Assembly (NCBI GenBank): GCA_949775045.1
Contig: OX459100.1
Coordinates: 17,192,241 to 17,256,240 of the forward strand
Direction of reading: 5' to 3'
From: Metridium senile
Lineage: Eukaryota; Cnidaria; Anthozoa; Actiniaria; Metridiidae
DNA: 64,000 bases
Shown here: positions 1 to 56,445 of the stretch, in pieces
How the letters are laid out: each line of letters begins with the position of its first letter
Numbering within the stretch: the stretch's first letter is position 1
Notes under the pieces: generated by a model
What the model was told of the DNA's origin: nothing
The model's database searches: none
The model's input: only the letters and a program-made list of their open reading frames with translations
Program-made: the position numbers and the translations under genes

Positions 1-990
<990 letters not shown>

Positions 991-1581: not shown

Positions 1582-4500
1582 ATGGCGACTGAATCGTTGA
1601 CTCCTGATCGATCTCTTCTTAATCCAAAGTTCGAGGGCTATAAGCTGCCTTCAGACCAAGTTGATGTAAAAACAACAAACCTTGTATCAGATGTGAAAGT
1701 TGTACATCCGAGAGATGATTTATTTTCACTGCAATACATTCGTGCATTTGGAAGTTACAGCCACCTCGTGGTCGACCGATGGCAAACAAACTGCGAACGA
1801 GTTTTCTTCGTGGACGAAAATAATGAAGTCCAACAAGCTACAGTCAAGGTAAGTGCAAATTTAGTTGTTGTTAGTTTTTCGGCTTTTAAATGCATTTAAA
1901 GTAATACAATGTTTGTATTTTAGAACATGAAAATCTTATCTATTTATTACATTTGTAAATTTATCTATACAAAAATGTGCAAAATTATATTCCTGTTCCG
2001 AAATATGTCATAGTTTGAAAATATTAAATAAATATTGTCTAAGTATTTAATGATAATTAGTTATTTGACTTCTCAAATGCTCTACAGCTCCCAGAGTGTT
2101 TACATCTCAGTATATAGAGGGTGGCTAAGGGGGGTTGGGGGATTGGTATGAGGTCATCAAATTCACGAATCAATGCACATATAGCAGAAGGGAAACCTGA
2201 GTTCTTTATTCATGTGTATTGGTGGTATTCATGAAAAGCTAAGAGGAACAAGGTTGAGTCGACATGGACAAAAATCTTGCACGAAATGGAGCTAATTGAT
2301 CACGAAACACGTACATTTTATGAAGGGAATCACTTGTCAAGACTAACATAGAACTCCTGGATCACGGACTGAATTTTGTTATTTTTACAAATCACACACT
2401 TTAATATTTTAGCCCAAATCATGTGTCACATGTTACCCCTTGGTCACCCTCTATATAGACACAAAGCGGCCTTTTTATATTGCTTTCACAAAATATTTTA
2501 GACATTTTTTTTTTTGCTGAGTGTGTCTCTGTCCTCTGATATAAACATGGTATTAAGCCAATCAGAGCGTGCATATATACTATCTTAAATATTTTATAAA
2601 TAAAATTTAAAGCATTGGTTCTCCTTTATTTATGTTTTTGTAATCTTGTTTACTTTGGGTTTTTTTTATACAGGATGGTTCTCTTGACTCACTAGAAAGT
2701 GTGTTCAAAATACCTTTATCAGAAGATACAAAGGAAAAGCTCAATGCCTCCATATTCTTTCCTTCAAAGGATTTTGTTTGCATCGGTGACGGTCTTGGTA
2801 AATTATATATTGTCCATTCCGAAGGTAGAATGAAGGGTAACAGCTCCGAGTGGAAAGTTTCCTTTGTTTATGAATTCGATATCCCGTTTGTTATCTTGCA
2901 TGCAACACAAGACGAGAAGTCAGGAAGTTTAAATTGCCTTCTGTTGAGTATGATAGAAAATGACAATGAAGTGTCGGCCAAAAAGGCTCACTTAGTAAAG
3001 TTGACTCTTGGTGTGTTTTCTCAAGTTAAAACTTCAGGGTCATCAAGTTTCAGTTGTGAGGCGATTAAGTATGCAGAAGGACACAGCTCACCTCTTTATG
3101 CTTCAATAGAGCCTGGTAGCAATGCCATTATAGCTGCAAGTGAAAAACCTTTCCACATGGTCAAAGGTAATGTCAATATAGCAAATAAATTAGATGAATC
3201 CATTTTGGTTTTTATGTTCATTATAAAAGGTTTTGCATAATAATCTGTACATAATAATCATTGCTGTCTATTTATTGACAAATCAAGCATTCTCAATAAT
3301 TATTACAAATCAGACTAAAATTAATATATATACATCAGTAAAAATATAATTAATAATAGATTTTTAATATTTGATTTGTTATAATTATTTCCCAGATAAC
3401 GGTACTTCACATGAAGTTTCAGATGAGAAAAAAACTGAAACAAAACAAGATGATGACAAAAATGATGATGCCAAAAATGATGATGCCAAAAATGATGATG
3501 CCAAAAATGATGATGCCAAAAATGATGATGATGATGATGAAAAGAAACTAGAATATACATACTCATGGTTCCAAGAGAACGATGATGTGACATTGAAGTT
3601 TGTCCTGGCCGAGGGAACAACCAAGGATGATGTTGTCTGCATTATAAAACCTGACGAGATAGAAGTTAGCTTATTCAATGGAGAAAGTCTACTAAAAGGA
3701 CCTTTATTTGCAAAGGTTAAAGCCGGGGACTGTACATGGACACTGGAAAAAAATTGGTGAGAAATTCATGGAATGTATTAATTCTGCTTGTTCCTTTATT
3801 CTGGATTGCAGATGCTTGTACAAGCATGAATTTCTTCAGATTAACCTTTCTCCTACATGTATATGACACTCACATACCTATTTCAATAATTGTTGTCATA
3901 ATCAAAGCTGCAGTGCAAGGGATGTCAGCATTTCTTCTCTTGTCACATTGATTTATTCATAACAGGTTCCCATTTAAATCTGTACTTATGCAAATTTTGT
4001 TGATGTGTGCTAAATACACAGATCAACCAATCAGAGAAGTTCACTTCAGAGATAATATACTCTGATTGGTTAATCTGTGTGTTTAGCACACATCAACACA
4101 ATTTGCATAAGTACAGATTTAAATGGGAAAGTACAGATTTAAATGGGAACCTGTTTCATATACATGTAGCATTTTTGGTTGTACATGTTTGTATTAAGTT
4201 GTTGTACTGGTTGATGATAAACAAATCTTTGAAAACCCTTTAAAAAAGTAAACAAATTATGTTGACATTATCAACATACAACATCAACATCCTTTGCTGC
4301 TATTCATAGATCCACAATTTGCTTGAGTGAACATAAAACAATTGCACAGTATTCCCACTGGAATATAGAATGTCCAACAAACATCGTAGATTTCAGAAAG
4401 ATTTACCGCATTTACTGTTTTTTCCTAACATACTCTTAGAATACATAAATTCCAAGACAGACTTATAAAGTTTTCAGCAATCTATGTATATTCGTGCTGT

Positions 4501-35931: not shown

Positions 35932-38900
35932 CTATTGCGGAGCACCAATCAGACTGTAAGTTGTTTTACAAACAGGACCACCCCATCCAAATAAACATAT
36001 CTTTCTGCCGTTCATACCACAGATATAATGACCATTAACGTCATCATCATGCGGGATGCAGTGCGTGTCACATTTCTTCCCATTCCACCATTTCCCACAC
36101 ATTCCTTTCCCATTTGAGTTGCAGATTATGTTTCCAGTATTGTCAGAGTCAGGGCGAAGACAGCTGAGGGAGCAGTTGTTTCCATAGTAACCCGGCAAAC
36201 ATTGGTTGCAACTTGCCGACAAAGATCCATTTGTGCATACTTTATTATATTCATCACAATCTTCACTGTCAACACCATCCAAAAAGCAAGGAATAGTACA
36301 ATTTAAGCCAGCCCATCCCAGAATACATTGCTTTCTTCCTACAGAGTCACAAGAATAATGCCCATTGATTGCATCATTGCGGGGTACACAGTATGTTTTA
36401 CAGGTTTCGCCGAACCACCACATACGGCATCTTTTGTTGTTGGTCTTGTCACAAGTATAGTGTCCATCTTGTGGGTTGCTTTTAGGTATGCATGGCGGTT
36501 TACAGTTGGGTGGTAGATACCCTTCCTGGCATGTCTGGAAAGGAAATAAGGGTGTGACGATGATAATGATTAGGAGGATCATTATGATGATATCAAAAAT
36601 AATGATCATGATAATAATAATATATATATATATATTTATATAGCGCACATGTCTGGGATTCATACAAAATATTTTAGAAATCGTTTATCATTTGCTGAAC
36701 AACTCAGAAACAACTATATCACCACAAGACGTTTGACTGATGTGCAGTATGATAAACCTTTTGTAATTAGAGTTGTTTGTGAGTTGTTTGAGGAACAACA
36801 AACGATTTCTAAAGTATTTCTGGGTGCCCACATTTTTTCGATTCACACTGTAACAAAACTTTTACCTTGCAATCAGGATCATCCCAATGTGGAAGGCATA
36901 TTTTGGTACCATTGGAGCTACATGTAAAATGTCCATTTACATCATCATCACTATCCACGCAGTGGTTATGACAATACTCCCCATACCACCCTTGTAAGCA
37001 ATGTTTGGTACCATTCACATCACATCTTGTGTTGGGACCTTCTATGCAATACTTTTTACAGGAATGACCATACCAATTGTCCAGGCAGACTTTAGTACCA
37101 TTTTTGTCGCATATGTAGTGACTTGTACTGTTTCTTTGACATAAAGTCTTGCAGTGTTTTCCATACCAGTTGGTGCGGCATATTTTGTTGCCATGGGAAT
37201 TGCATACATAATGGCCATTTATGTCATTGTCATAAGAGATACAATGCTTCTTGCAGTCTCCCCCATACCATCCTGGTCGACAGTACCTGTTGATGATTGT
37301 AATCATGTCAATCTTATCATTATCATTGGTATAATTACCTATTGTTAGAATGTAGATTCTTATAATTATTTGTAGACTCATAGTTAGCTTTATTAAAGAT
37401 ATCATCATCATATTAATCATTGTCATCATCATTGCGACCATTAACATCATCTTCAACAACATCATCACTAACCATCATTAACCACAACAATTAACTGCAC
37501 CAACATTAATTATCACTACTACCGTAAACATGCATCACCACAACCACCACCCCCACCATCTTCATAAACATCCTCATGCAATATTGTTGATATCAAAACC
37601 GTAAACACATCATTATTATCATCATTATATACCCCGGCGCTGCCATCATCACCACCACCATAAATAAAAAGCGTACCTATTTCAAGAAGAATCACACCAC
37701 AAATGTCATCATTATGGTCATATGTAGCCACACCACCACCACATAAACAAAACATCTTACCTATTTCCAGAGGAATCACACCTAAAGTGACCACGCACAC
37801 CATCATCATGTTCCACGCACTGTTTTTTACACTCGTTACCATACCAACGATTATAACATACTTTGTTGCCGTCATTATCACAATAGTAATGACCAAACTT
37901 GCTGTGTGACTTTCGACAGTACTTGGTACATCGATCACCATAGTAATTATTCTCACAGTAGACTTTCATCTGTACTTCGAGGCTTGAGCGTCTACCACGA
38001 AGTGTTCGAGAATACACGTGCGATTGGTAGCCGTTAGAACTAGGTTGACTAACGGGTAAAGTAACTGACAGCTTGTCGATGAGGTCATCTGCTGTGATAG
38101 CATCCCAGTCCCATACTTCTATGTAAAGACCAAGTTTGCCCTTGAAACAATTAATATAAGAAGTATTGAGAAACAGTCGAAACCAATCATGTTTGAATAA
38201 AAGAAGAAATTGAATGAACCACTGGGTGTATGAGTTAATGATTAAGTGGTGTTGATGAATGAACGGACGTATATGAATGAATAAGTTGATGAATGAATGA
38301 ACAAATAAATGCATAACAAGGAAGATGAAAAATGAACTGAAAAAGAATGCAAGCCCTTGATCAATTTATGAATGGAAACTAGCGAGTAAACTAGTATAGG
38401 CTGCGTCGGTGTTTGATATAAATGACAGATAATAGAATGAAACTAGCGAGTAAACTAGTATAGGCTGCGACGGTGTTTTATATAAATGATATAGGTAATA
38501 GAATGAAACTAGCGAGTAAACTAGTATAGGCTGCGTCGGTGTTTGATTATATAAACGATAGGTAATATAATGAAACTAGCGAGTAAACTAGTATAGGCTG
38601 CGTCGGTGTTTGATTATATAAACGATAGGTAATATAATGAAACTAGAGAGTAAACTAGTATAGGCTGCGTCGGTGTTTGATTATATAAACGATAGGTAAT
38701 AGAATGAAACTAGCGAGTACACCAGTATAGGCTGCGTCGGTGTTTGATATAAATGACAGGTAATAGAATGAAACTAGCGAGTAAACTAGTATAGGCTGCG
38801 TCGGTGTTTGATATAAATGACAGATAATAGAATGAAACTAGCGAGTAAACTAGTATAGGCTGCGTCGGTGTTTGATATAATGACAGGTAATAGAATGAAA

Positions 38901-39987
38901 TTTTAAACATCGTAAAAATGTACCCTTCGTCGGAGTAAAACCTTTTACTCCGACGAAGGGCTAAAGCTCGAAACGGCATAAAGTTGAGTCAACATTTTTT
39001 ACGGTGTTACAAATTTAATTATATTACCTATAATTTATAAATGTATGAACTGAATAAATGATCAATTAGTTTCACCAATAAATAAAGGAATGAATGAGCT
39101 GAATGCAGAATTTGTACATCATCTCCGCTGTATTGTATTATCTAGAGAAATCTCTTTAATGATAAGCTGAAGTGTTTATGAATTTCCGAATGGCGAATGC
39201 GTGCGCGTTGCACACGAGTGACGCTTTTATTTATTAACTCGCGGTTTTGCAATCCACAAGTTAAAAATCGTGCGCATTTATAAATTAAACTTACAGAGAA
39301 TGAAGTAAAGGCCCTTTTGATAGAAAAATGCATGTAGATATCATTGTGTCCCATCTTGGAAGTCTTTATATTAGCCAATGAACATCCACTTAAGGAATTA
39401 CGATGAGCTGAGTTGGACAGACAGATCTTGAAGTACGTATTACATTTGCTTCTGCATCGACGACCCCAGAGTTGAACGTCGCAGCATTTGCCGTTCCATT
39501 TACGACCGGTAGGGTTGCGATATCGCTTGAAAGTTACGGATACATGGCCGCGTCCCTCGACTTCAAACTACAAAAAGAAAGATCAACTTTTCTAAAATAC
39601 TCTTGGGCTTTTGGTTGGATCTGGTTACGCAGATTCTTCGCTTTTTAAAAATTCAATTTTGTTCTAGATTCCTTTAATTAGAATTAAAGATATCAAGTCA
39701 CAAGTAATCTAAGCAATTAGTATAGAGCTCAAGTGGAAGTGGTGTAACTGCGGATGCATCAATTTTTTTTAACTGAGTTCTTTCAGCCACCAGTAGTCGG
39801 CCATTTTTGTAGTGTGTGTGATGACATAATATTTTTTCCGTGCCTAAATACGTCACAGCGTTAATCAATCAATCAATCATGAAAATCTTTACCGCAAACA
39901 TTTAAATTCCAAACCATTTAAACTTAAAGTACTTACTGTAAGTATACAAAGAAGCCAGAGACCAACGATAAGCAAAACGCGATTCAT
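35932..39987 (-). CDS. DSL-A: secreted MNNL plus multi-DSL-repeat protein (5 exons)
   Basis: A Notch-ligand-like protein of unusual architecture. Exons: 39937-39987, 39295-39567, 37761-38140, 36866-37286, 35932-36534; 1728 nt, 575 residues, all phases join. Residues 1-17 (MNRVLLIVGLWLLCILT) are a signal peptide. Residues ~18-165 resemble the MNNL domain of Delta/Jagged (GKCCDVQLWGRRC, then CNTYFKICLS; exon 3 opens GKLGLYIEVWDWDAI). From Cys170 a classic DSL domain (CENNYYGDRCTKYC ... GHYYCDNDGNKVC) runs into about ten further DSL-like units, each roughly CxxxxxxxxGHYxCxxxGxKxCxxxWYGxxC. One unit (TNGSLSASCNQCLPGYYGNNC) looks EGF-like. The C-terminus (...TTYSLIGAPQ) has no transmembrane segment, so secretion is predicted. 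Poly(A) candidate at 35478-35483. No EGF array and no known ortholog name; a role in Notch signalling is inference. Confidence 0.85.
38375..38900. repeat. ~65-bp minisatellite in DSL-A intron 2
   Basis: Eight to nine head-to-tail units of 64-67 bp, each containing gaaactagcgagtaaactag and ggctgcgtcggtgtttgat. Unit starts are near 38375, 38439, 38505, 38572, 38639, 38705, 38770 and 38834. It is absent from the equivalent DSL-B intron. Confidence 0.92.
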
Positions 39988-41020
39988 CTTGCACTAGCAA
40001 TTCGTGCTATGAAGGCTTGATGTGAAGGTCAGCTAAGAGTCAACTTGATGCATGGTTTTGGAGATGACGCAATGAAACCGATATCTAGCCCCCAGCGGAA
40101 CCAACTGACACATGACAAGGATTGATTGATCAATCAGGAAGTATGCAGCGAGGTGATTGAAATTGAAATTTCGAAGAAATGTTCATATAGGGACATTAAA
40201 TGATCATCCAAAACTTGTATTATTGCAGAAAAATAGGAGACATTTGTGTTTTGAAGGAATTTTATTGAAGACAAAACTATCTAATTAATATTTAATCTTG
40301 ACACACAAACGTGGAGTAAACCAATCATCCGTGAGTCTCTTAGAGTGGGCTCCCTGTGCATGACATAGCTTTGCAGGAGACTAAAAAAAGACAAATAGAC
40401 TAAAAACAGTAATGTTAATGACAGTATTTGTTAAATTATTATAAAAAGCATCTACAGAATTGATGCTTTTATTACTTTTGGATCTTTTGTATTAAAGACT
40501 CATGTCAAATCTTATCTAATTATGAGGTTGTGTTGGCTTGCAATCTCAACACATTTATTCATTCAAGTCATGTTAAACAAAAGAATTAGAATGTAATAAT
40601 ACTAGCAGCTAAATACACTACAGTCTCTGTTATGGTGCCTATAAAGGGCTATAAATTTGCTTTTTCCACTCTAACAAATGTTACTAACCTAAAACAACTG
40701 ACCAGTACATAATTTGTATACATGTATTTCACTGGCACTATTTTTTCAAAAAATTTGATGTCAGGTGTTGGCTTTTAATTAATAAAAATGTATGTCACCA
40801 CTTGTTTGGGCCATGTTGAGTGTCGTCAGGACCCTTTTATAGGCCTGGGGTTTTATAAACAATATAGTGGAATGCCAAGCAGAATTTTAAAATGTTTGAT
40901 GATTGTGCTGTGTTTTGTTTTGTTGTGTAGTTTAGGATTGTTTTAAATCAATGCATTCATGCATGTGAATGTAAAAACACTATGCTACAGTCTGTTTTAC
41001 AGGGGTATTTTAAACCCTCT

Positions 41021-44000
41021 CTATTGCGGAGCACCAAACAGACTGTAAGTTGTTTTACAAACAGGACCACCCCATCCAAATAAACATATCTTTCTGCCGT
41101 TTATACCACAGATATAATGACCATTAACATCATCATCATGCGGGATGCAGTGCGTGTCACATTTCTTCCCATTCCACCATTTCCCACACATTCCTTTCCC
41201 ATTTGAGTTGCAGATTATGTTTCCAGTATTGTCAGAGTCGGGGCGAAGACAGCTGAGGGAGCAGTTGTTTCCATAGTAACCCGGCAAACATTGGTTGCAA
41301 CTTGCCGACAAAGATCCATTTGTGCATACTTTATTATATTCATCACAATCTTCACTGTCAACACCATCCAAAAAGCAAGGAATAGTACAATTTAAGCCAG
41401 CCCATCCCAGAATACATTGCTTTCTTCCTACAGAGTCACAAGAATAATGCCCATTGATTGCATCATTGCGGGGTACACAGTATGTTTTACAGGTTTCGCC
41501 GAACCACCACATACGGCATCTTTTGTTGTTGGTCTTGTCACAAGTATAGTGTCCATCTTGTGGGTTGCTTTTAGGTATGCATGGCGGTTTACAGCTGGGT
41601 GGTAGATACCCTTCCTGGCATGTCTGGAAAGGAAATAAGGGTGTGACGATGATAATGATTAGGAGGATCATTATGATGATATCAAAAATAATGATCATGA
41701 TAATAATAATAATATATATATATTTATATAGCGCACATGTCTGGGATTCATAAAAAATATTTCAGAAATCGTTTATCATTTGCTGAACAAATCAGAAACA
41801 ACTATATCACCGCAAGACGTTTGACTGATGTGCAGTATGATAAACCTTTTGTAATTAGAGTTGTTTGTGAGTTGTTCGACGAACAATAAACGATTTCTAA
41901 AGTATTTCTGGGTGCCCACATTTTTTCGATTCACACTGTAACAAAACTTTTACCTTGCAGTCAGGATCATCCCAATGTGGAAGGCATATCTTGGTACCAT
42001 TGGAGCTACATGTAAAATGTCCATTTACATCATCATCACTATCCACGCAGTGGTTATGACAATACTCCCCATACCACCCTTGTAAGCAATGTTTGGTACC
42101 ATTCACATCACATCTTGTGTTGGGACCTTCTATGCAATACTTTTTACAGGAATGACCATACCAATTGTCCAGGCAGACTTTAGTACCATTTTTGTCGCAT
42201 ATGTAGTGACTTGTACTGTTTCTTTGACATAAAGTCTTGCAGTGTTTTCCATACCAGTTGGTGTGGCATATTTTGGTACCATTCACATCACATCTTGTGT
42301 TGGGACCTTCTATGCAATACTTTTTACAGGAATGACCATACCAATTGTCCAGGCAGACTTTAGTACCATTTTTGTCGCATATGTAGTGACTTGTACTGTT
42401 TCTTTGACATAAAGTCTTGCAGTGTTTTCCATACCAGTTGGTGTGGCATATTTTGGTACCATTCACATCACATCTTGTGTTGGGACCTTCTATGCAATAC
42501 TTTTTACAGGAATGACCATACCAATTGTCCAGGCAGACTTTAGTACCATTTTTGTCGCATATGTAGTGACTTGTACTGTTTCTTTGACATAAAGTCTTGC
42601 AGTGTTTTCCATACCAGTTGGTGCGGCATATTTTGTTGCCATGGGAATTGCATACATAATGGCCATTTATGTCATTGTCATAAGAGATACAATGCTTCTT
42701 GCAGTCTCCACCATACCATCCTGGTCGACAGTACCTGTTGATGATTGTAATCACGTCAATCTTATCATCATTATCATTGGTATAATTACCTATTGTTAGA
42801 ATGTAGATTCTTATAATTATTTGTAGACTCATAGTTAGCTTTATTAAAGATATCATCACCATCATATTTATCATTGTCATCATCATTGCGACCATTAACA
42901 TCATCTTCAACAACATTAACCACAACAATTAACTGCACCGACATTAATTACCACCACTATACCGTAAACATGCATCACCACAACCACCACCCCCACCATC
43001 TTCATAAACATCCTCATGCAATATTGTTGATATCAAAACCGTAAACACATCATTATTATCATCATTATATACCCCACCATCATCACCACCACCATAAATA
43101 GAAAGCGTACCTATTTCCAGAAGAATCACACCACAAATGTCATCATTATGGTCATATGTAGTCACACCACCACCACATAAACAAAACATCTTACCTATTT
43201 CCAGAAGAATCACACCTAAAGTGACCACGCACACCATCATCATGTTCCACGCACTGTTTTCTACATTCGTTACCATACCAACGATTATAACATACTTTGT
43301 TGCCGTCATTGTCACAATAGTAATGACCAACCTTGCTGTGTGACTTTCGACAGTACTTGGTACATCGATCACCATAGTAATTATTCTCACAGTAGACTTT
43401 CATCTGTACTTCGAGGCTTGAGCGTCTACCACGAAGTGTTCGAGAATACATGCGCGATTGGTAGCCGTTAGAACTAGGTTGACTAACGGGTAAAGTAACT
43501 GACAGCTTGTCGATGAGGTCATCTGCTGTGATAGCATCCCAGTCCCATACTTCTATGTAAAGACCAAGTTTGCCCTTGGAACAATTAATATAAGAAGTAT
43601 TGATAAACAGTCGAACCAAAATTAAATTCAAGGGCTTTTCAAGTGCCCTTAAAAACATAAATCAAATCTAAGGAGTTTTCAAGGAGTTTAAGGAGTAGCA
43701 TGAACCCTGTCGGAGTAAAAGCTTTTACTCCGACGAAGGGCTAAAGCTCGAAACGGCATAAGGTTGAGTCAACATTTTTTACGGTGTTACAAATTTAATT
43801 ATATTACCTATAATTTATAAATGTATGAACTGAATAAATGATCAATTAGTTACACCAATAAATAAAGGAATGAATGTACTGAATGCAGAATTGTATTATC
43901 TAGAGAAATCTCTTTTTGATTATAAGCTGAATGGCGAATGCGTGCGCGTTGCACACGAGTGACGCTTTTATTTATTAACTCGCGGTTTTGCAATCCACGG

Positions 44001-44727
44001 AGTTAAAAATCGTGCGCATTTATAAATTAAACTTACAGAGAATGAAGTAAAGGCCCTTTTGATAGAAAAATGCATGTAGATATCATTGTGTCCCATCTTG
44101 GAAGTCTTTATATTAGCCAATGAACATCCACTTAAGGAATTACGATTAGCTGAGTTGGACAGACAGATCTTGAAGTACGTATTACATTTGATTCTACATC
44201 GACGACCCCAGAGATGAACGTCGCAGCATTTGCCGTTCCATTTACGACCGGTAGGGTTGCGATATCGCTTGAAAGTTACGGATACATGCCCTCGTCCCTC
44301 GACTTCAAACTACAAAAAGAAAGATCAACTACATGTTATTATGTTTTCTAAAATACTTTTGGGCTTTTGGTTGCGCAGATTCTTCGCTTTAAATTCAATT
44401 TTGTTCTGGATTCCTTAGAATTAATCGTGTCAATTCACAAGTAATCTAAGCAATTAGTATAGTGCTCAAGTGGAAGTGGTGTAACTGCGGATGCATCAAT
44501 TTTTTTTAACTGAGTTCTTTCAGTAACCAGTACTTAGTCGGTCATTTTTGTAGTGTGTGTGATGACATAATATTTTTCAATGCCTAAATACGTCACAGCG
44601 TTAATCAATCAATCAATTATGACAATCTTTACCACAAACATTTAAATTCCAACCCATTTAAACTCAAAGTACTTACTGTAAGTATACTAAGAAGCCAGAG
44701 ACCAACGATAAGCAAAACGCGATTCAT
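41021..44727 (-). CDS. DSL-B: secreted MNNL plus multi-DSL-repeat protein (5 exons)
   Basis: Tandem paralog of DSL-A. Exons: 44677-44727, 44037-44309, 43195-43574, 41954-42734, 41021-41623; 2088 nt, 695 residues, all phases join and exon borders match DSL-A exactly. The signal peptide is MNRVLLIVGLWLLSILT, followed by the MNNL-like region and then the DSL chain. The chain is about four units longer than in DSL-A, because exon 4 holds three perfect 180 bp repeats (60 residues, two DSL-like units each). Apart from this it differs from DSL-A by few residues in exon 5 (for example PPSC for PPNC, GING for GMNG, LFGAPQ for LIGAPQ). No membrane anchor is visible, and the reading frame is intact. N-glycosylation sequons (NGT, NST) recur in many units. 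Poly(A) candidate at 40554-40559. Function is inferred as for DSL-A. Confidence 0.85.
42093..42632. repeat. Perfect 180-bp triplication inside DSL-B exon 4
   Basis: Three consecutive 180 bp blocks (42093-42272, 42273-42452, 42453-42632) are identical over almost their whole length. Each encodes 60 residues, including CQRNSTSHYICDKNGTKVC and CIEGPNTRCDVNGTK. DSL-A has one such block. The frame is preserved. Confidence 0.95.
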
Positions 44728-45518
44728 CTTGCACTAGCAATTCGTGCTATGAAGGCTTGATGTGAAGGTCAGCTAAGAGTCAACTTGATGCATGGTTTTG
44801 GAGATGACGCGATGAAACCGATATCTAGCCCCAAGCGGAACCAACTGACACATGACAAGGATTAATTGATCAATCAGGAAGTATGCAGCGAGGTGATTGA
44901 GCAACGCAACGGATTAACTTGTTTATTTTAAATCGTCATTTTTTTACTTCCTTCCTTTCAAGTTACCTTTCCTCTAAATTTGTTAACCTATTTTTGATCT
45001 TGTGTTATTGTACTCCTTCCGCTTTATATCTATTCATTCTTCACCCATTTATCCATTTACTCATTCATTCACTCATTCGTCCATACATCTATCCATTTAG
45101 TTGTTTGGTCATTTCTTCCTTCGCATTTTTCTCCTTATTTTTCTATCTTCCTTTTTTCCCTCTTCTTACTTCCCTCCGCATTCGTTGCTTGATTTGTCTA
45201 ACGTACTCAAAGAACTGGTCCAAATTGTCGAATCAGTCTACTAAAAAGAGCATAATTATTATAAGCATCGGTCTTGGTCTAATTTGCGTGGCTCTATGTT
45301 TGCATTGTCGATAAGAAATGAGCTAAACCTGTTAACAGTAGATTGAAACCCCTTGATAAATCTGTTTACAAAACCCATTTGGATAATTTAAGTGTGGGTG
45401 GGGCACTTGGGTTTAGCATTCTAGAATAAACGTGACCCAAAAGATACAAATATATACAACTGCACGTTTATTAGAGAGAACGTTTAATAACATACTGACC
45501 AGTTTCATATACACCTAT

Positions 45519-45815
45519 ATTTCAAAAATCGTTGTCGCAGCCGGAGCTACAGTCCACATTCTAAAGCCTGCAAAGGATATCGGTTACATGGACTTAATTA
45601 ATTTGTGATTTATTGCACGTTTTTTAAAGAAAATATTTATATTTATATCTACCACAACAACAACTTGTTATGGTCATATAATACAAACACGTACAACCAA
45701 AATATGCTATGAATAAATCGATAACAAGAGAAGAAATACTGACAAACTTTGCAGGCTTCAGAGCGTGGACTGTGGCTTTAATTGTTTGCGACAACGATTT
45801 TTGAAATAGGTGTAT
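45519..45815. mobile_element. Foldback element, same family as 15496-15782
   Basis: Ends acacctatatttcaaaaatc and its inverse; inner arms carry cagtccacattctaaagcct. The centre is the reverse complement of the 15.5 kb copy (for example acgtacaaccaaaatatgct). Confidence 0.8.
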
Positions 45816-45817
45816 GT

Positions 45818-46380
45818 ACAGAGTAAAGAGTGCACAAAATCTTTATAACAATTGTATATATTTACATATAATTAGTGGAATCAAATTATCCGATCCATAT
45901 ACATCAATAAATCTACATATATAGCAAATAATTTAAAATATATGTTCTTTCATTTTATTTCGCATTTTATTTGTTCAAATCTTATCTAGACCTACGGGTA
46001 CTATCGTTAACCTCACCCTATACCAGAGTAAAGAGTACACAAAATCAGTATGACAATGATGGACAATTGCAAGAACGTTGTCCTGACTTGTGTAATTTAG
46101 TGGGAAATGAATTAATTAAAATACAAAAGAAGATCATTCAAACTGAACTATTTCTTTTGTTATTCTTTTCTTACCGAATGTACGTTCTTTTTTCATGAGA
46201 CAATTAACCTTCTTGCAATTAGGTGTATATATTTACATATCGTTAGTGGAATATCCATACATCAATAAATCTACATCTATAGCAAATTATTTTCAATCTA
46301 TGCCCTTTAATTTTATTTCGCATGTGCCTTCACATCTTATCTAGTCCTACTGGTACTATCATCAACCCCTCCCCACCCTC
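45818..46380. repeat. Imperfect tandem duplication
   Basis: The ordered phrases gagtaaagagtgcacaaaat, catcaataaatctacatata and cttatctagacctacgggta recur in the same order about 200-370 bp later with substitutions. Non-coding. Confidence 0.65.
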
Positions 46381-47000
46381 ACTAATAAATTTTTATTAGC
46401 TGGCACTTTTGTTTTAGAAATTGCAACCTTCTAATAAGGTTTTTCGTACGTGTGTTATATCTTAAATCGATGCATCGCTAACAGCAAATTGTGAATTTCG
46501 TTTTGATTTAGGATTCAATTATCTGATCATGACCCATCAATCAGTGTATCCAAACAGCCAATGAATGGAAGAGTTTGTGTAAGCTTCGCCCCCAAGGATA
46601 TTGGACAGGTCAGAAATTACCAATGTTAGCCTGCGTTGCAGTCGACTGCGGGGTTGCTAGGAAGCTCGTAGATCGACTGCAACGCACGCTACACCAAAGT
46701 TAGATCGCGAGGTCGCAATTAATGCAGCAATTTTAGAAATCAAGAATTAAAGAGCGGGAATGAATATGTACAGAGAAATTACGCAACTTCTAATTCCACT
46801 TTAAATCTTTCAAGTCAATCTCGTACCCAGATCCTACGTTACCCTTGGCCTGCACAGAGCTCTGGTTACTCGGCGGCGCTGGCCAAGAGGAACGCAGGCT
46901 CTGGGTACGAGATTGGTAACCTCGTTCCCAGGATCTTTCGTTTTTGGTTGAAGGTCCTGGGAGCAAGGTTGGTCTAACGAATTGATCTACCATGCACCAA

Positions 47001-50000
47001 TCAGCAGTCGTGTTCAAAAGTATACGAATCAAATATAGCAACCCAATCACTATTATCCCGTAGGCCAGTCTTCGGGTCGACCCGCGGGTCAGGTGCGGGA
47101 TTAGGGTCTACATCGTGTCTTTCTACAAATAATGGATTGTTGAACATAACTAATTTATCGTCAACGTTACGTGACCCGTCTTGGTTCCTGAGAATGAAAA
47201 AATAAAAGAATATACATTAGAAAGGTTAAAGAATATCACCTTGGGAAAGGTGATTGTAATTATATAACTGACTAATTGAATAAATGAATATACAAAATAA
47301 AGACTAACGCAAAAATCCGATGTTTCGATTTTTTGCGTTAGTCTTTATTTTAAATAAGTTCTCTAAATCTCTTTTACTTAAAGAATATACAAAAGAAGAA
47401 ATATTTAACTGGAAATCGTATAATAGTCCCATTCACAGTTCCCTGCGCCATCTTGAAAGGTAGCCGGGCCTTTGCATCGAAGCGAGACGAACATTGAGCT
47501 TGGAATGATAGAGACACGTGAATAATTGTTCCGCAAGGTGTTAAAAGGTCTCTATCATTGCAAGCTCAACGTTCGTCTTACTTCGATGCAAAGGCCTGGC
47601 ACCTTTCAAGATGGCGCAGGGAACTGTTAAGGGAACTATTGCTGGCTGAATTGATGAAAGACTCTTTGAGGTTGTGGCTCAATCAATTAATGATTGATTA
47701 TTGAATTAATGGATGGATAAAATAGATGGAATATTAATTAATTAATAAAAGAATCAATAAATGAATGGCTTATCCATGAATAGATAAATGTCGATGGACA
47801 GATCCGGATAGATATGGAATTCTACAATTACAAAGCTATGTTCTTTATTTACTTGTCTATATCATCTATATATATATATCATAGCGCGCGGTCAATATGA
47901 AAATGGCGAGGGAGAAAGCCCTTGGGACAAGGTTAAGTAAAACAATAAGCATGGTTCCTAAACTTACCACGAGACTTCTTGTAAATTGATAACTACATCT
48001 TTTTTCAGGTCTTTAGTTGCGCTGTCATCATATTGGGACAGCAAATTTGGTATTCTACTCTGGCGCTTTTCTTTCGCATCAGGGTCGAGTTCCTTGGGTT
48101 CGCGCACAATATCTGTTCGTTGTAAAGAACCCTCCGTTGATGTGTTCTTGTATCTGTGGTATGGAAAGTGAGGGGATGGTCGCTTGGTCTGTCGTCGGCT
48201 AAAACGAAATATGTACATCGTAAATATCTTCGTCAACATCATCCCAATCATCATAATCGTCTTTACCCTGCTAGAAAAACTCCTCCGCAGAAGAGCGAGA
48301 CAAATTCCCTGGTTAGCAGTGTAAATCGTCATCATAACCATCATCATCAACAACATTTCATCATATTTATATTACCCGTCATTGTTGTATATATATATTG
48401 CCTATTGCCACAATCGTCTGTACCATTATAAATTCCATTACATCACAATATATTTTAAAAGTGCGTATGCATATGCCGGTGCATCCATGGCTTTTTTCCC
48501 TCTATATGTTATTATTTCTATAAGTTATATGTTTTTATACTAAACAATTATGTTACAGTAATTTTGAGTACACTACAGTACAAACACTAAAAGTGTGCAA
48601 CATAAATACCACTAAATACTACTAAATTATGCAAATTCTTTTGTTCTTTATTGTTTAATCAACACTATTTAGTGGTAAATAGTACAAAGTATTGCACACT
48701 TTTAGTGTTTGTACTCTAGCTTTGAAAGGCACTAATATTTAGCGTCGACCGGTGGTTCGTTCAGCTAGAAGCTGATCAACCAGGAAGCCGACGGTGCAAC
48801 CTCCACCCCCCCCCCCCTCCCCCTCTATCTATCTATTATACTTAGCTTTATTGTTATTTATAATATAGCTTAGATAGTACGTAAGCTCTGATTGGTTGAT
48901 TCACTCAAAAAAGCTATGCTCTATTTCACCGGTAGAGACATGGTTTTTGATTGACAGCTCACAATTTTAATAAGAGTTGTTCTGTTATAAGCTACTACAT
49001 CTACTAAAAACGGCTATTAAAATGTAAAAAGACTTTCCATCTTGTGAACGTTCTGGTAACCTAAACCCTGAAGCCTACGGTGCAATGAAATGCAATTCAA
49101 AGGCGACAAAAATCAGAGACATGGCTTTGAAAATACGCCGCCTTTAGACAAACTGTAAAGTTGGAAGTCAAAAGTTGAATTTGATCAAAGCAAACAAAAA
49201 CAAAAGGAAAACAGCGTTTCAAAGTGGCAATAATTTTTACTTCATTTTAGCCTTGACATATGAAGATAATTTCATAGTGAATAAGTGAAATTTTTTTGCA
49301 ATTGAACTCGATTAATCTTGAACAAATAACTTGCATGTTCGTTGAATTTATCGACGGCAAAATATTATATTTTGTTTTATAAAAACAAACAAACAAACAC
49401 ACAATCAATTACAGAATTATAAATGTGCTTTCAAGTTTTTTATTCTTATAAATAAACCATGTTTGAAAACAAGCAATGTGAACAAAAAGGCAGATTTACA
49501 ATTATCTTTCAATTGTCTCGTCAAAATGAAAACAGAAACTTATAAATCTTAAACCTGCAAACGTTTTATTAAAAGTAAATAAATACATACTTTCAGCAGC
49601 CTAAGTAATCTTGTAGATGTGGTCTTTGTTCTTTTTAACTTCAAAACGTTGTACACAGCAAGCTTGTCTTGTTCAAACTGTTTTTTTCTCAGTGTGATAA
49701 ATTGCTGTCAGTCGGCACGGCTTTCACCACTCAAATTCGCTTGAATTGCTGTATATATGTCAGTCTCATGCAAGAGTTCAGCTAAAGGTTTTTGTTTTTA
49801 GCCACAGAAGTCAACCAAAGCTATGTTTTAACGGTTTTATAAATGAAATTCCTTCTTTTTAGCTAGCAAAAAGACCCGGGAAGAAAGTGAACAGCACCTT
49901 GGTCGCCACCTTGGTCCTTTTTGGTCAAGATTGCTCAATAGTACACTGATTGTGATTGGTTCATTGGGCACTAGTGTTAGTTTTGAGAATTACAATTTTA

Positions 50001-53000
50001 ATCAGCAAATAAAACTACGTTTTTACGGAAAACCAGCATTGCTATATTATAAAAGCAATAGAAGCCAGTTCCTATGACTCTACCAGTGAAATAGAGCACT
50101 TGGGATGTTGTTAGAAACACTCGAAAAAGTTATAAAATCACTCGCTTTCAGCTCGTGATTTTATAACTTTTCTCGTGTTTCTCCCAACATCCCGCGTGCT
50201 CTATTTCACCGGTAGAGTCATAGGAACTGGCTTCTATTGCTTAATTAAAGCTATTCAAGGGTGAGGCCACTGGACCTTTCGCTCCGAAAGACGCACACTA
50301 ACCACCGAAAGCCGTGCACTTTCTATCACATCGCTTCATACAAATTGTGGTAAAATCTACCTAAAGATTTTATTACCAAAATATCATGATATTTCATCTC
50401 TTTACCTGCATATTATAATAGCCGATCCAACTGTGATGCATATGAAGAGCAAGGACCCACCAAGGATCAACGCCAGTGACAGTTCGTTAAGTGTGGATGC
50501 TGTCCTCGCTTGTCTGTCCCCACTTTCTTTTGGCGGTTGTTCAGTTCTTGATGAATTTGTTGGCTCGATAATTAGAATTTCTGAAAAATAACAAGTCAAT
50601 CTGTTACTGGGTGGAGAACTCAACTTTACAGTTTTAAAGGTTTATATACTGTTCTTACAACATAAATCATATGAATACTATACGATATAGTAGCATGCAA
50701 TTTAACTTTATTTTATGGACATAGTGTTGGAGCAGATCCAGATGCAAATGAAGGGCTCTTATGGTGTTAGGGGGTATTCGGTCCCTAAATGTCTTAAATA
50801 AAATAGGGGTAGTTGCGGCGGGGGTGTCCGGGGGTGTCCGGTGCCACTAGAGACATCCCCTAGATCCGCCCCTGACTCTATAAACATAATGATATTATAC
50901 AATAATAAAAAGCTCTAATGAAATGTGCTTACCGTCCTTACAGTTAGTCCCAGTCCACCCCTCCATGCACACTTCCTGACCCGTCCGTGAGTCACAAGTA
51001 TAATGTCCCTGGGCATTGTCACGTGGCTCGCAATGAACAGTACAATTTTCTCCATACCAGTTCTCCAAACAGATTACGTCTCCAGCAGCACTGCAGCGAT
51101 AATGTCCATGGTCACTTTCCTGCCCTTTGCAATACCTCAAACATTTAGTCCCGTACCAATTTTCGAGGCACAGGAGAGCACCATCGTCCCGGCACTCATA
51201 GTGTCCAGTAAGGGAACTATTCTGTGCCTTGCAGTATGTTTTACAACCAGGGCCATACCAGTATTGATGACATAACTTAGTTCCATTGACGTCACAGTCA
51301 TAATGCCCAAACCAGTCATTATCACGGGGAGTGCAAGGGGTTGAACATTTCTCCCCATACCACCCCTGAAGGCAGATTTTTTGTCCAGTCAGTTGATTAC
51401 ATTCATAATGAGCTTGATGATCATCACGTGGTTCGCAGTGTACTGTGCAGTTCGCACCGTACCAATTACGCGCGCAAATGAGTGTGTTATTCACGGAGCA
51501 CATGGTTGTCTCTTCGCTGCTCGTTTCATTGCGCGGAGGACAGTACACATCACATTTCTTACCAAACCAGTATTTCAAACACCCTTTGGCGCCATTTTGT
51601 GGATTGCAAGTATAATGGCCGCCTGAGTCATTTCTCGGAGTGCAGAATACATCACAATGTATTCCATACCATCCTAAATGACATATTCGTTCACCTGTTG
51701 TTGCATTGCACTCAAATGCAGCTATCGAATCATTTCTTGAGCTACAGTCACATTTGGGACCAAACCAACCGGTCAAACATGTTTTATGGCCTGTTGCTAA
51801 GTTACATGTGTAGCCTGATGTCGAATCGTTGCGAGGCAAGCAGTATACGTCACACTGGCTGCTAGGATACCAGCTAGCAAGGCATATTCTGTTGCCGTTG
51901 GAATCACAGGTGTAGCCAGATGACGAGTCATTGTGAGCGATGCAGAACGTTTTGCAATCAGAGCCGTACCAGCCAGACAGACAAACCTGACGAACATAGA
52001 TTTAAAATTGAATAAACATGTTGTAATACAACTAAAGGCCCGTGCAAACGCACGCAACATTGTTGGACCAACATGGTTGCTCCAACATGTTGGGCCCGTT
52101 CAAACACCCTGTTGGATGAAGTTTGATGAAACTCATCCAACATTTCTTTTGTTCTCGTCTTCAACAAACCGTATCGCAACAATGTTGGCCAACAATGTTG
52201 CGTGCGTTTGCTCGGGCCTTAATAGAGTGAATGCATTTAACGCGTGAAATAAAAATTGCTTGCTAAAGTGTAATAGTCAAATAGACTCAAAAGAAAACAA
52301 TGGAATTAGGGTCTACTAAAGAGTGTTAAAAAATTCATGAATAACTCATGACTATTTTGTCCAAATTTACACAAGAAATCGTAACCATGACGAGTGGTCT
52401 AAATCCTGATAAAGATTAACCCTAATTTACATAAACTTTAACCTGAATTTTCTCTAATAGACTTTCATAAATCCTTGATTTTTTTTAATAAAAACACAAA
52501 ATATAGGATGGAGTTTTTTAAGCCGTTTAGTAAACTATACTTAGTCTTATCAGTAATGGGTAATGGGCTCCTGGTCTTATCTATGTCACGGGTTTAATGA
52601 ACTCACTCTAGCATCAGCGTTTTCTTATTCAAAAGATCAGTTAATAAATGGTAAACAAATTAAAAAATAACTTTAATAAAGAGGACTTTATTAGATTCTC
52701 TACTTATTTTTATTTAATTGCTTCCTATTTATTATTATATATTCTTATATTTTTTTATAGAAGCATTTGATACCACGCAAACTGATTTAACCTTAACAAT
52801 TTATTTAAATCAAAGTTCTTTGTACGTTTGTACCAATTTTTACTTCGACGTTCTCAAATTTACCATCCACAAAATCTTTCTTACTCGTCGCTACTTTTTA
52901 AATTTATTTCTTTATTTTCTATAAAAAAAACACGAGGCTCATTCACTTAAATTAACATTTTAAATTAAGATAAAATAACATCTGTAATATATTTGTTATT

Positions 53001-56000
53001 CATTAAATATATTTTTGTTTTATTTTATTAGAATTAGAATTAAAGTTAGGTCGACAAAGCAACAAAATACTGTATTCTGATTGGTTATAAGTTTGCCGCA
53101 GAATGAAATGTATTTCCAGAAATACTGCAAGTTGATTGGCTGAAAATTTGCCGCAGAAAAGTTCTGCGTCAAAATCGCTGAAGCATACAGTTTACAATTC
53201 AACGTGTTACACGAAGGATTTGTCGCTGCAACAGGAATTAGTATTTCGAAATAACAAAGACTTGTGAGTACATATTATTTTTGTCAGAAACTTATTGTTC
53301 AATGCTGTTTTGCTTTCTTGTTCGATGTTTGTTTAGTATTTTTGTTTGTATAAGGTTCTTGTGTGGTTTATGGATATTTGTGTGTTTGTGCGTTTGATTG
53401 TTTGTTTGTTTGTTTGAATGTTTATTGGTTTGTTTGAATGTTTCAGGTTTGTTTGTTTGTTTGTGTATTCAGTTTGTTTGTTTAAATATTTGTTTGTTTG
53501 TGTGTTTGATTGTTTGTTTGTTTGTTTGTGTATTCAGTTTGTTTGTTTAAATAGATATTTGTTTGTTTAAATGTTTGTCTGTTTGAATGTTTGTTTGTTC
53601 GTGTGTTTGTTTGTTTAAATATTTGTTTGTTCGTTTTTTCAGTTTGTTTGACTGTTTGTTTGTTCGTGTGTTTCTTTGTTTGTTTCAATGTTTATTTGCT
53701 CGCGTGTTCAGTTTATTTGAATGTTTGTTTATTTATTCATGTGTTTGTTTGTTTTATTAACTTGTTAATCTATTAATGAATTTATATACGGCCATTCTAT
53801 CAATTTTGTCAAGATAAACAAACATTTCACGGGGACTAGTCCAAATAAATAAGTATTGAACGTTGTGAGTGTGAGCGAACCTCACGCAAGTGCCCTTACG
53901 GTTGTAAAATGTACGTTTTTGCGTTGACATTTCATGGCTAGAATTTTACCTTTTTGCCTGTGTTATCACATGTATAATGCCCATTGATGTCGTTATTCTT
54001 TGGTACACAGTATGTAAGGCAATTTTTTCCATACCAACTGTTACGGCACACTTTTTCTCCGGTTTTCAAATCACAGGTATAATGGCCTTGGTGGTCGTCA
54101 CGTGCCAGGCAGTACTTGGTACAACTCGGTCCATAATAGTCTTTATTGCACTGGACACTGTATCGAAGTGTCATGGTACTTGGTCCTCCCTGGAATGGTT
54201 ATAATAATGCTGGTGAGGATAATAGTGAAGATGATAATAATCATAAAAAGATGATAGTAGTGATGATGATGATGAGAGTAGTGATGATGATGATGATGAT
54301 AGTAGTGAAAATGTTGATAATGGGGGTGATGATGGTGATGATGATGCTAATAATGATAATGATGTATAGTGGCGATGATGATGATAGTACTGATGATAAT
54401 GGGGGTGATGATGGTGATGATGATGCTAATAATGATAATGATGAATAGTATGGTGACATGGGGATGATGGCTGTGAGAATGTTAGTGTTTGTAACGATGA
54501 TGATGGTAATCATAATAGTGAAAATGGTGATTGAAATGGTGGTGCATGGTGATGATGATGATGGTAAAGATGATGATAATGTTCATTATAATATTCGGAT
54601 GGCAATATAAGATTTGATTTGACGATGATGATGATAAACAATGTCAATGAAAATGATGATGGCAACAGTGATGCCTGTTCATGACAATAGTCTGCGAACT
54701 CAGACATTCCAACGGTTATAATTAGTTGTACTACGTGTTTGGCTGCTGCTAGTTAGAGTGGTTTTCATTAACCCGTGAAACACACTTAAGCGTAATATGC
54801 TTTATTACACTTTATTACACTTTAACTTTAACTTTGTGTTTTATAATCATTTGTTCAATATAGCACTATTACACATTAATACACTTTATTACTCTTTCCC
54901 TATTACACTTTGTTTCACGGGTTAATAAAAACCACTCTACTCGGTACTTTTTATGTTTTAAACGACGGTGATGAAAATCGTATTTTACATCTGTCTGAGT
55001 TAGCAGAAAACCGCAGCCGATGACATTAATGATAATAATTTAGATTGTAATGATAAATATCATTATCTCAATATATAAAGGGATGGTAATGATAATCATG
55101 ATAATGATGATGATGACGACGATAATGATAATGATGATGACCATGGTAACAATAACGTCTTTTTACCTTGACATTAAGAGTCGTCCATGTTTGTTGTACA
55201 ATTCCAGCAGTGGGCGTAACCAGCTTGTCAATAAAATACTTGTCAACTAAATCATCAAAAGAGATTGTGTCTCTATCAGTCACAACTATATTGACTATTA
55301 GCTTTCCCTGGAATAGTAACAAAAACATATTATTAAGGAATAATACTATCTATCACAAGAAAGAATTCCATCACATCAATCCATCCATCACAACTATATG
55401 ACTATTAGTTTTACATGGAATGGTCACGAAAACACCTGTGTGCAACAAAGCAGAGTAAAAATGATCCTTACAGGTACGGAATCATGTCACATAACTGATT
55501 TTTGAGCCATAGCCCTAAAAGGGCCCTGAAAGGTACGCACAGGAAATATTTTTAACCCTAAAAGGTACGCCGATCACCCATACCACTTGAACAGAGGAGC
55601 GGTCCCCCGGTTGAAAACACTATTGATAAGAAATATAACTATTGTACAAGCGTACATTTTGACAGCTATAATTGTAATGATCTCCAAAAGCTCTAAAGTA
55701 AATTAATGCAACCATTGATGCAACCATACACAGACTTGTAACTCGTCCTAAATAGAAAAGTAACTAAACGCAGTTTTTGGAGTAATCACAACTGAATCGT
55801 ATTTATAGACGGAGTAACTGTGGATGCATCGATTTACTCAAATCTTTTAGTAACAATACAATATTAAGAATATCCTCTTGTTAGTAACCAATAGTTTAAA
55901 TAGTTGCTTTTACATAGTGTAACTGTAGATGCATCGCGATTAATAACTTAATTCATTAAATAATTGTCAATGAAATACCTATATTTCTCTATTTCAAAAA

Positions 56001-56445
56001 TTTGATATCTTCACATGTGGAAATAACATGTTATTTTCACATGTGAAGATATCATCACTATGATTACACAGCTTTACGGAAACTTATTGTGTCGAAAAAA
56101 GTTTTAATTTATTTTCATTGATAATTATATAATAAACAACATTACATGGTCGCCCATTTCATATTTTACCTTCCACGATGGACGCTGCTTGACGAGAGGA
56201 TTATCATAGTTTCCAAGTTTTCCACTACCTTTAGTGAAAACTATATCATAAATGTCGTACCATGTCTTTGTTTTTATGTCAAGAACACAGTTTCCACTTG
56301 AAGAGTCCTTGAGACATATCTTGAAGTAGTAGTCACATCTAGTGCACGTCTTCTCACAGCAATATCCATTCAAGTCTTTACTATCGGGATTTTTAAAACT
56401 GATCAATTCTATTGAAACTTTAACTCCAGGCCCCCCAATGGTGTA
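47001..56445 (-). CDS. DSL-C: membrane-anchored MNNL plus 12-DSL-repeat protein (first exon not found)
   Basis: Exons seen: 56170-56445, 55167-55307, 53950-54189, 50933-51986, 50406-50580, 47968-48198, 47001-47187; 2304 nt, 767 residues, all phases join. Counting from the first visible residue: 1-139 is an MNNL domain (NGYCCEKTCTRCDYYFKICL matches the Jagged/Delta pattern), and 153-568 is a chain of about 12 DSL-like units starting CNKDYYGPSCTKYC. A Ser/Thr/Glu-rich stalk of ~33 residues follows. Residues ~604-628 (LSLALILGGSLLFICITVGS...) are the membrane helix, ended by RRQTKRP. The cytoplasmic tail is ~139 residues ending YTFEHDC. The exon 1/2 border (phase 0, before GKLIVN) equals the DSL-A/B border before GKLGLY, so the genes share ancestry. 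A signal-peptide exon must lie upstream; the only weak candidate is 60439-60504 (MVILNEFLNIIRILISLTDI). Layout of one membrane form next to two secreted forms suggests a related role in Notch-type contact signalling, unproven. Confidence 0.85.
47423..47640. mobile_element. Foldback element in DSL-C last intron
   Basis: Arms of about 95 bp (aatagtcccattcacagttc through gatagagacac, and inverse). A smaller perfect hairpin, aaataaagactaacgcaaaa and inverse, lies nearby at 47297-47354. Confidence 0.78.
50054..50242. mobile_element. Palindromic element
   Basis: Arms agcaatagaagccagttcct through aaacactcg are inverted around a centre of tataaaatcac repeats. The centre motif ctcgctttcagctcgtg is shared with the foldback at 8264-8452, suggesting related elements. 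It lies in the DSL-C intron upstream of the tail exon. Related text gaaatagagc/ctatttcaccggtagag also occurs at 48917-48940. Confidence 0.75.
52034..52220. mobile_element. Foldback element 48 bp upstream of the large DSL-C exon
   Basis: Arms aaaggcccgtgcaaacgcacg and inverse; the interior is built of aacatgttgg/ccaacaatgtt motifs. It sits very close to the splice acceptor at 51987. Confidence 0.8.
53390..53775. repeat. (GTTT)n microsatellite
   Basis: Impure TTTG/GTTT repeats with some longer phrases (tgtgtattcagtttgtttgt) repeated. Intron of DSL-C. The Cys/Val/Phe and Lys/Gln/Thr ORFs over it are artefacts. Confidence 0.9.
54200..54680. repeat. (GAT)n microsatellite
   Basis: GAT-rich tract in a DSL-C intron with a ~90 bp duplicated block (aatgggggtgatgatggtga ... 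aatgataatgatg). Similar, shorter GAT tracts lie at 55025-55145. Confidence 0.88.
54754..54942. mobile_element. Foldback element inserted in an older repeat
   Basis: Ends agagtggttttcattaaccc and inverse (gggttaataaaaaccactct), about 189 bp. It interrupts a sequence (cagacattccaac ... tggctgctgctagttag | ctcggtactttttatg) that resembles 13770-13840. Confidence 0.7.
55441..55612. mobile_element. Partial copy of the CCTAAAAGGTACG foldback family
   Basis: Matches one half of the element at 61111-61380 in inverse orientation (gagtaaaaatgatccttaca, aactgatttttgagcc, cataccacttgaacagagga). Lies in DSL-C intron 1 of the model. Confidence 0.65.

What the first reader, a model, noticed from the sequence alone, without database searches (positions are those of the whole stretch)
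35932..56445. Cluster of three Notch-ligand-like genes built from long DSL-repeat chains without an EGF array
Seen: each protein has an MNNL-like N-terminus followed directly by about 11 to 15 DSL-like units. Known: canonical Delta, Serrate and Jagged proteins carry one DSL domain followed by several EGF repeats. Here the DSL module itself has been multiplied and the EGF array is missing. This may be an undescribed or lineage-specific ligand class. All three genes share strand and a conserved intron at the MNNL exon border, so they arose by local duplication.
Basis: partly seen in the sequence, partly recalled or inferred. Interest (0 to 1): 0.88.

Follow-up and report, generated by a model that had tools for sequence, protein, structure and literature searches.

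The report
Sea-anemone Notch-ligand-like DSL-chain gene cluster
In what is likely a sea anemone's genome, three neighbouring genes are predicted to encode proteins that start like Notch ligands but replace the usual EGF repeats with a chain of 10 to 15 receptor-binding (DSL) units; one is predicted to be membrane-anchored and likely signals through Notch, while the two beside it lack a predicted anchor and would be secreted, likely as Notch blockers.

Summary
Three minus-strand genes (A 56445-47001, B 44727-41021, C 39987-35932) are predicted to encode an MNNL/C2 domain and then 12, 14-15 and 10-11 DSL units; no EGF repeat was found. New here: gene A runs on into a transmembrane exon and a conserved tail, while B and C stop without an anchor, and predicted Nematostella relatives show the same split. 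Neighbouring DSLs share a hairpin. A's units keep their order: 11 of 12 best-match the same-numbered Nematostella unit. Only unit 9 of A carries the Phe that Jagged1 needs for Notch binding, as do the 3 of 3 A-type relatives that reach it. The genome holds more poly-DSL genes, two with 43 and 49 units. The class is not undescribed: Gazave 2009 saw DSL-only and MNLL+3-DSL genes in cnidarians and left misassembly open. Only the B/C duplication is recent; the shared MNNL intron also occurs in EGF-bearing ligand genes. Notch binding is untested, and most poly-DSL relatives lack that Phe. Verdict: real, conserved, a new variant of a known kind.

The parts
56170..56445 (-). Gene A, MNNL/C2 exon (first half); upstream signal-peptide exon not found
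   Evidence: Splice borders and frame; alignment to Serrate/Jagged-1
55167..55307 (-). Gene A, MNNL/C2 exon (second half)
53950..54189 (-). Gene A, DSL units 1-2
50933..51986 (-). Gene A, large exon with DSL units 3-12; unit 9 carries DWFGHY
   Evidence: AF2 model mean pLDDT 87
50406..50580 (-). Gene A, stalk and predicted transmembrane exon
   Evidence: mean hydropathy 2.43 over 19 residues at residue 609
47968..48198 (-). Gene A, cytoplasmic exon 1
   Evidence: conserved in Nematostella and Actinostola
47001..47187 (-). Gene A, cytoplasmic exon 2 with NNPLF and RVDPKTGLRDNSDW blocks, stop
44677..44727 (-). Gene B, predicted signal-peptide exon (ATG at 44727)
44037..44309 (-). Gene B, MNNL/C2 exon (first half)
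43195..43574 (-). Gene B, MNNL second half plus DSL units 1-2
41954..42734 (-). Gene B, middle DSL exon
42092..42642 (-). Three near-identical 180-bp copies inside gene B's middle DSL exon (two DSL units each); gene C's exon is 360 bases shorter
41021..41623 (-). Gene B, last DSL exon, ends in a stop, no membrane anchor
39937..39987 (-). Gene C, predicted signal-peptide exon
39295..39567 (-). Gene C, MNNL/C2 exon (first half)
37761..38140 (-). Gene C, MNNL second half plus DSL units 1-2
36866..37286 (-). Gene C, middle DSL exon
35932..36534 (-). Gene C, last DSL exon, ends in a stop, no membrane anchor

Best explanation
Three adjacent genes are predicted to encode an MNNL/C2 domain followed by a chain of DSL units without EGF repeats; gene A also has a predicted transmembrane segment and a conserved tail and likely acts as a membrane-bound Notch ligand, while B and C lack a predicted anchor and would be secreted, likely as Notch antagonists. 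Shown from sequence: domain content and order, exon structure, no EGF pattern in the locus, anchor-like segment in A and none after the chain in B and C, and the same split in predicted Nematostella proteins. Predicted by models: the units fold as DSLs, with the WYG hairpin of one unit serving as the start of the next, which would make a jointed rod. Inferred: A docks on Notch through unit 9, its one unit that keeps the Jagged1 Phe207-type residue, and its endocytosis, possibly through the conserved NPLF motif, pulls on Notch. Inferred: soluble B and C, whose first unit has V or F there, bind Notch without pulling and so block it.
For: Domains. No EGF. Anchor split A/P0001 versus B/C/P0008. 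Tail conserved, 68 of 135 aligned residues identical between A and Nematostella. Unit order kept 11 of 12 (Nematostella) and 8 of 8 (Actinostola). Models match Dll1/Jagged/Dll4 structures. Unit 9 Phe in A, P0001, P0003 and the matching P0007 unit; F207A abolishes Notch-1 binding of Jagged-1: PMC3888931. Secreted Delta ectodomain blocks Notch activation: PMC3063240 citing Sun 1997. The genome has a Notch NOD exon and Neuralized-domain exons. B/C dN 0.0080 versus dS 0.0328.
Against: No binding, expression or transcript data. Unit 1 of A, where canonical ligands bind, has Q at the key position, and 11 of 12 A units lack Phe. Phe is at that place, with a loop of 10 or more, in only 8 of the 34 fetched proteins, two of these being ordinary Serrate/Jagged; P0005, the next closest to the A group, has none in 12 units, nor does P0008 (Tyr in unit 1) or Clytia P0016. 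The loop of unit 9 is one residue longer than in Jagged1. Canonical ligands also have EGF repeats, absent here. One EGF-bearing Delta of this genome has N at that place, so the Phe is not a strict mark. Related genes with 43-49 near-identical units look more like adhesion or surface proteins. C's units keep their number in Nematostella P0008 in only 2 of 11. Foldseek also matches the models to scavenger receptor SCARF1, more weakly (1.1e-5, 7.7e-5).
Confidence: 0.45

Rival explanations
1. A cnidarian adhesion or recognition family descended from Notch ligands but no longer acting on Notch: the DSL chain is a rod that binds itself, matrix, microbes or other cells, and unit number is tuned by repeat duplication.
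For: Two genes on C6 with 49 and 43 units, mean identity 0.84 and 0.70 within the array, open frames of 2123 and 1915 aa, each ending in a Ser/Thr-rich stretch (39% and 33%) and an anchor-like segment; relatives P0006, P0014, P0015 and P0018 with similar stalks, 32-40% Ser+Thr; 26 of 34 fetched proteins have no Phe at the key place; B has two more 180-bp unit pairs than C.
Against: A's unit order and number are kept, its tail is conserved and unit 9 keeps a ligand-like face, unlike the homogenised arrays.
Confidence: 0.38
2. Draper/MEGF-type engulfment receptors, as NCBI names the relatives ('protein draper', 'multiple epidermal growth factor-like domains protein 11').
For: Automatic names of P0001 and P0005; EGF_TEN passes its cut-off of 65 in P0001 (77.2) and P0003 (78.5); weaker Foldseek match to SCARF1; the tail has an NPxF motif.
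Against: MNNL present; no EMI and no laminin-EGF family listed for A, B or C at E up to 1 (HMMER's filters drop most matches above about 0.1); DSL is the top family; the best structures are Notch ligands; B and C have no anchor.
Confidence: 0.07
3. Gene-prediction or assembly artefact, or decayed genes, as Gazave 2009 left open for the Nematostella cases.
For: B and C are near-copies in tandem; A's first exon was not found; a C14 DSL array carries in-frame stops.
Against: Intact splice sites and frames in all three genes; relatives in Nematostella and Actinostola; B/C dN/dS about 0.24, with 60 of 1590 intron bases against 22 of 1725 coding bases different, gaps left out.
Confidence: 0.03

Closest known systems
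Delta/Serrate/Jagged Notch ligands
   Same: Predicted signal peptide (B, C), MNNL/C2, DSL next to it, type I membrane topology in A, same MNNL intron place
   Different: 10-15 DSL units sharing hairpins instead of one; no EGF repeats; B and C without anchor
Cnidarian DSL-only and MNLL+3-DSL genes (Gazave et al. 2009, PMC2770060)
   Same: EGF-less DSL repeats, with or without MNLL
   Different: The passages I read leave misassembly open and describe no anchor split, tail, unit orthology or hairpin sharing; the paper's Additional file 7 was not seen
Nematostella 'protein draper' P0001 and 'delta-like protein D' P0008
   Same: Closest full-length relatives of A and of B/C
   Different: Names do not reflect the architecture
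Bivalve EGF-less DSL tandem-repeat genes (PMC8166818)
   Same: DSL or DSL tandem repeats without EGF, as the paper says
   Different: Not compared here; MNNL and anchor status unknown to me
Soluble DSL-type ligands: C. elegans DSL-1/OSM-11 (recalled); Hydra gland-cell DSL protein (PMC3180645, passages)
   Same: Secreted, DSL-bearing or ligand-like
   Different: A single DSL domain or none; not a long chain

Membership tests
Canonical Notch ligand (Delta/Serrate/Jagged) | MNNL/C2 N-terminal domain | tested here: met
   Pfam in B and C; A by phmmer to Serrate/Jagged-1, model of its Nematostella relative by Foldseek; Pfam itself did not report it for A
Canonical Notch ligand (Delta/Serrate/Jagged) | DSL domain directly after MNNL | tested here: met
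Canonical Notch ligand (Delta/Serrate/Jagged) | EGF repeats after the DSL | tested here: not met
   0 EGF patterns in 34001-60000 against 19 in four C4 loci; no EGF family over its cut-off
Canonical Notch ligand (Delta/Serrate/Jagged) | Single-pass membrane anchor, gene A | tested here: met
   Predicted by hydropathy
Canonical Notch ligand (Delta/Serrate/Jagged) | Single-pass membrane anchor, genes B and C | tested here: not met
   No hydrophobic segment after the chain
Canonical Notch ligand (Delta/Serrate/Jagged) | Notch-binding DSL face (Jagged1 F207 type) | tested here: inconclusive
   Unit 9 of A and unit 1 of C have Phe, unit 1 of B Val; most other units do not
Canonical Notch ligand (Delta/Serrate/Jagged) | Binds and activates Notch | not testable with these tools
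   -
Draper/MEGF10/11 | EMI domain and laminin-type EGF repeats (recalled definition) | tested here: not met
   None among Pfam families listed up to E 1 for A, B, C
Draper/MEGF10/11 | NPxY and ITAM motifs in the tail (recalled definition) | tested here: inconclusive
   NPLF is present and conserved; ITAM not assessed
Cnidarian EGF-less poly-DSL genes (Gazave 2009) | DSL repeats with or without MNLL, no EGF | tested here: met
   sequence identity to that paper's cases not checked (supplement not read)
Bivalve DSL tandem-repeat genes | Common descent with these genes | not tested
   -

The most novel reading that the evidence does not exclude
Cnidarians run a second Notch-ligand system built without EGF repeats: a rod of hairpin-sharing DSL units whose ninth unit is the receptor-docking one, encoded next door to its own secreted antagonist, with the pair kept together since before sea-anemone families diverged.
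Probability: 0.25. Interest if true: 0.82.

Novelty: new variant of a known kind. Interest (0 to 1): 0.6.

Why it matters
It speaks to a question left open in 2009 (true genes or misassembly?) in favour of true, conserved genes, and gives a definite split into anchored and secreted forms that can be tested in Nematostella. A 2025 study lists four Notch ligands there (delta, delta-like, jagged1-like, jagged1B-like; PMC12381260, passages); whether 'delta-like' is P0008 could not be checked, but P0001, named 'protein draper', is not among those names. If these proteins act on Notch, EGF repeats are not needed in a ligand; if not, the Notch-binding fold was turned into an adhesion rod.
Full report
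WHAT IS THERE. The window lies in an unnamed 389-Mb genome (contig C6). The strongest protein hits are from the sea anemones Actinostola and Nematostella, so I take it as a likely sea anemone. On the minus strand I modelled three genes from open frames and GT-AG borders. Gene A: seven exons found, 56445 to 47001, 767 residues, first exon missing. Gene B: five exons, 44727-41021, 695 residues. Gene C: five exons, 39987-35932, 575 residues. There is no transcript evidence.

DOMAINS. Pfam gives DSL 12, 14 and 10 times (E 1.3e-96, 8.6e-93, 7.1e-75), and MNNL for B and C (2.9e-14, 7.2e-15) but not for A. A's N-terminus does align with Serrate and Jagged-1 over the MNNL-DSL region. EGF_TEN is listed below its cut-off for A, B and C, but above it for the relatives P0001 and P0003; it overlaps the DSL chain. 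An EGF pattern matched 0 times in 34001-60000 and 12, 3, 1 and 3 times in the four C4 loci of the same genome.

ANCHORED AND SECRETED. A has one strong hydrophobic segment after the chain and a tail of about 140 residues; B and C have only the N-terminal one. Nematostella P0001 (48% identity over 98% of A) has an anchor-like segment and tail; P0008 (44% over 99% of C) has none. Both are listed with contigs of the same length, 16139615, so likely on one chromosome. The Actinostola prediction P0004 joins the A-type tail to a B-type start and has the locus number next to P0002, which is the A-type front; A and B thus likely sit side by side there too. The tail is 68 of 135 identical between A and Nematostella and 82 of 124 between A and Actinostola, with blocks NLL-YDD, EVSW/EISW, VM-NNPLF and RVDP-TGLRDNSDW. 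NPLF resembles NPxY/F sorting motifs (recalled); its role is inferred.

AGE AND SELECTION. Of A's 12 units, 11 best-match the same-numbered Nematostella unit (8 of 8 for Actinostola P0002; 8 of 12 for Oculina P0003), with mean identity of 0.40 between units inside A; 0 of 200000 random draws reached 11. C against P0008 gave only 2 of 11, so that lineage has gained, lost or shifted units. B and C differ at 22 of 1725 aligned coding bases and 60 of 1590 intron bases, gaps left out; dN 0.0080, dS 0.0328. The tree groups A with P0002 (95/94), P0001 (96/93), then P0003 (86/86) and P0005 (98/93); B-type rows fall outside and are poorly resolved. The MNNL exon ends at a matching place in EGF-bearing loci of C4 (FAWL|gtaagt, NWP|gtgagt, AWP|gtaagt, TWP|gtaagt) and in two other C6 genes (17274458, 536045); for the gene at 623271 no donor was seen by the pattern. 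This intron is therefore likely ancestral.

NOTCH-CONTACT RESIDUES. In Jagged-1, F207A abolishes Notch-1 binding (PMC3888931, passages), and Arg203Lys in the DSL is said to act on Notch recognition (PMC5538765, passages). The residue at the F207 place is Phe in unit 9 of A, P0001 and P0003 (aligned) and in the P0007 unit with the same motif; P0002 ends before it. It is Phe in no other A unit. In unit 1 it is Q (A), S (P0001), Q (P0002), A (P0003), A (P0007), but F (C), V (B), Y (P0008) and V in the B-type part of P0004. Of 34 fetched proteins, 8 have Phe there in a loop of 10 or more: P0001, P0003 and P0007 once, P0006 twice, P0012 and P0015 once, and the ordinary Serrate/Jagged proteins P0029 and P0031 in unit 1; P0005, closest outside that A group, has none. 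Unit 9 is also the best-conserved unit between A and Nematostella (68%). Against this, its loop has 12 residues where Jagged-1 has 11, and one EGF-bearing Delta of this genome has N there.

WIDER FAMILY. A DSL search of the genome gave 142 matches (150 of 204 candidates scored) and an MNNL search 9 exons, four on C4 and five on C6 (A not among them). On C6 lie two more large genes: an MNNL exon at 623271 followed by a 2123-residue frame with 49 units, and a 1915-residue frame at 14179110-14184854 with 43 units; both end in a Ser/Thr-rich stretch and an anchor-like segment. Two short ones lie near 0.54 and 17.28 Mb. Outside anthozoans, Clytia P0016 has 9 DSL stretches and an anchor-like segment; Pfam gave no MNNL for it. 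Multi-DSL proteins also occur in the comb jelly Bolinopsis (P0024, with laminin-EGF; P0025) and, with EGF repeats, the annelid Owenia (P0022).

LITERATURE. Gazave 2009 (PMC2770060, passages) is the key precedent. PMC8166818 (passages) reports bivalve DSL repeats without EGF. [quoted passage not shown] PMC12381260 (passages) lists four Nematostella ligands. PMC3063240 (passages) cites that secreted Delta ectodomain blocks Notch. Also looked into: PMC10970066, PMC4335385, PMC6040629 (passages).

HOW IT LIKELY WORKS. Shown: architecture, anchor split by hydropathy, conservation. Inferred: A reaches across from its cell and engages Notch by unit 9, and uptake of A pulls on Notch; B and C occupy Notch without pull. 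The main rival, an adhesion family that left Notch, is nearly as likely, because giant arrays in the same family look built for length rather than for one docking site and most relatives lack the Phe.

Noticed in passing
L022 with L023 (C6:623271-630187): Giant poly-DSL gene: MNNL exon, then a single 2123-residue open frame with 49 DSL units at 84% mean identity, and an anchor-like segment.
   Followed up: partly
L024 (C6:14179110-14184854, minus): Second giant: 1915-residue frame, 43 DSL units at 70% mean identity, Ser/Thr-rich stretch, anchor-like segment.
   Followed up: partly
L033 (C14:1653349-1654074): DSL array whose matches are listed with in-frame TAA stops; only described.
   Followed up: no
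window 38370-38900: 67-bp tandem repeat, 8.1 copies, in intron 2 of gene C; gene B's intron 2 is 692 bases shorter.
   Followed up: partly
   Followed up: partly
C9:4833197-4849069 of G000: Cluster of many Neuralized-domain matches, some with stops, suggesting a local expansion of this family.
   Followed up: no
L026 (C6:17257456-17260560): Exons of a likely CAP (cysteine-rich secretory) protein just outside the window, upstream of gene A; one exon was checked with Pfam.
   Followed up: no
window 2-331 minus; 3368-3757 plus: Tubulin fragment and a CS-domain exon at the window's left end.
   Followed up: no
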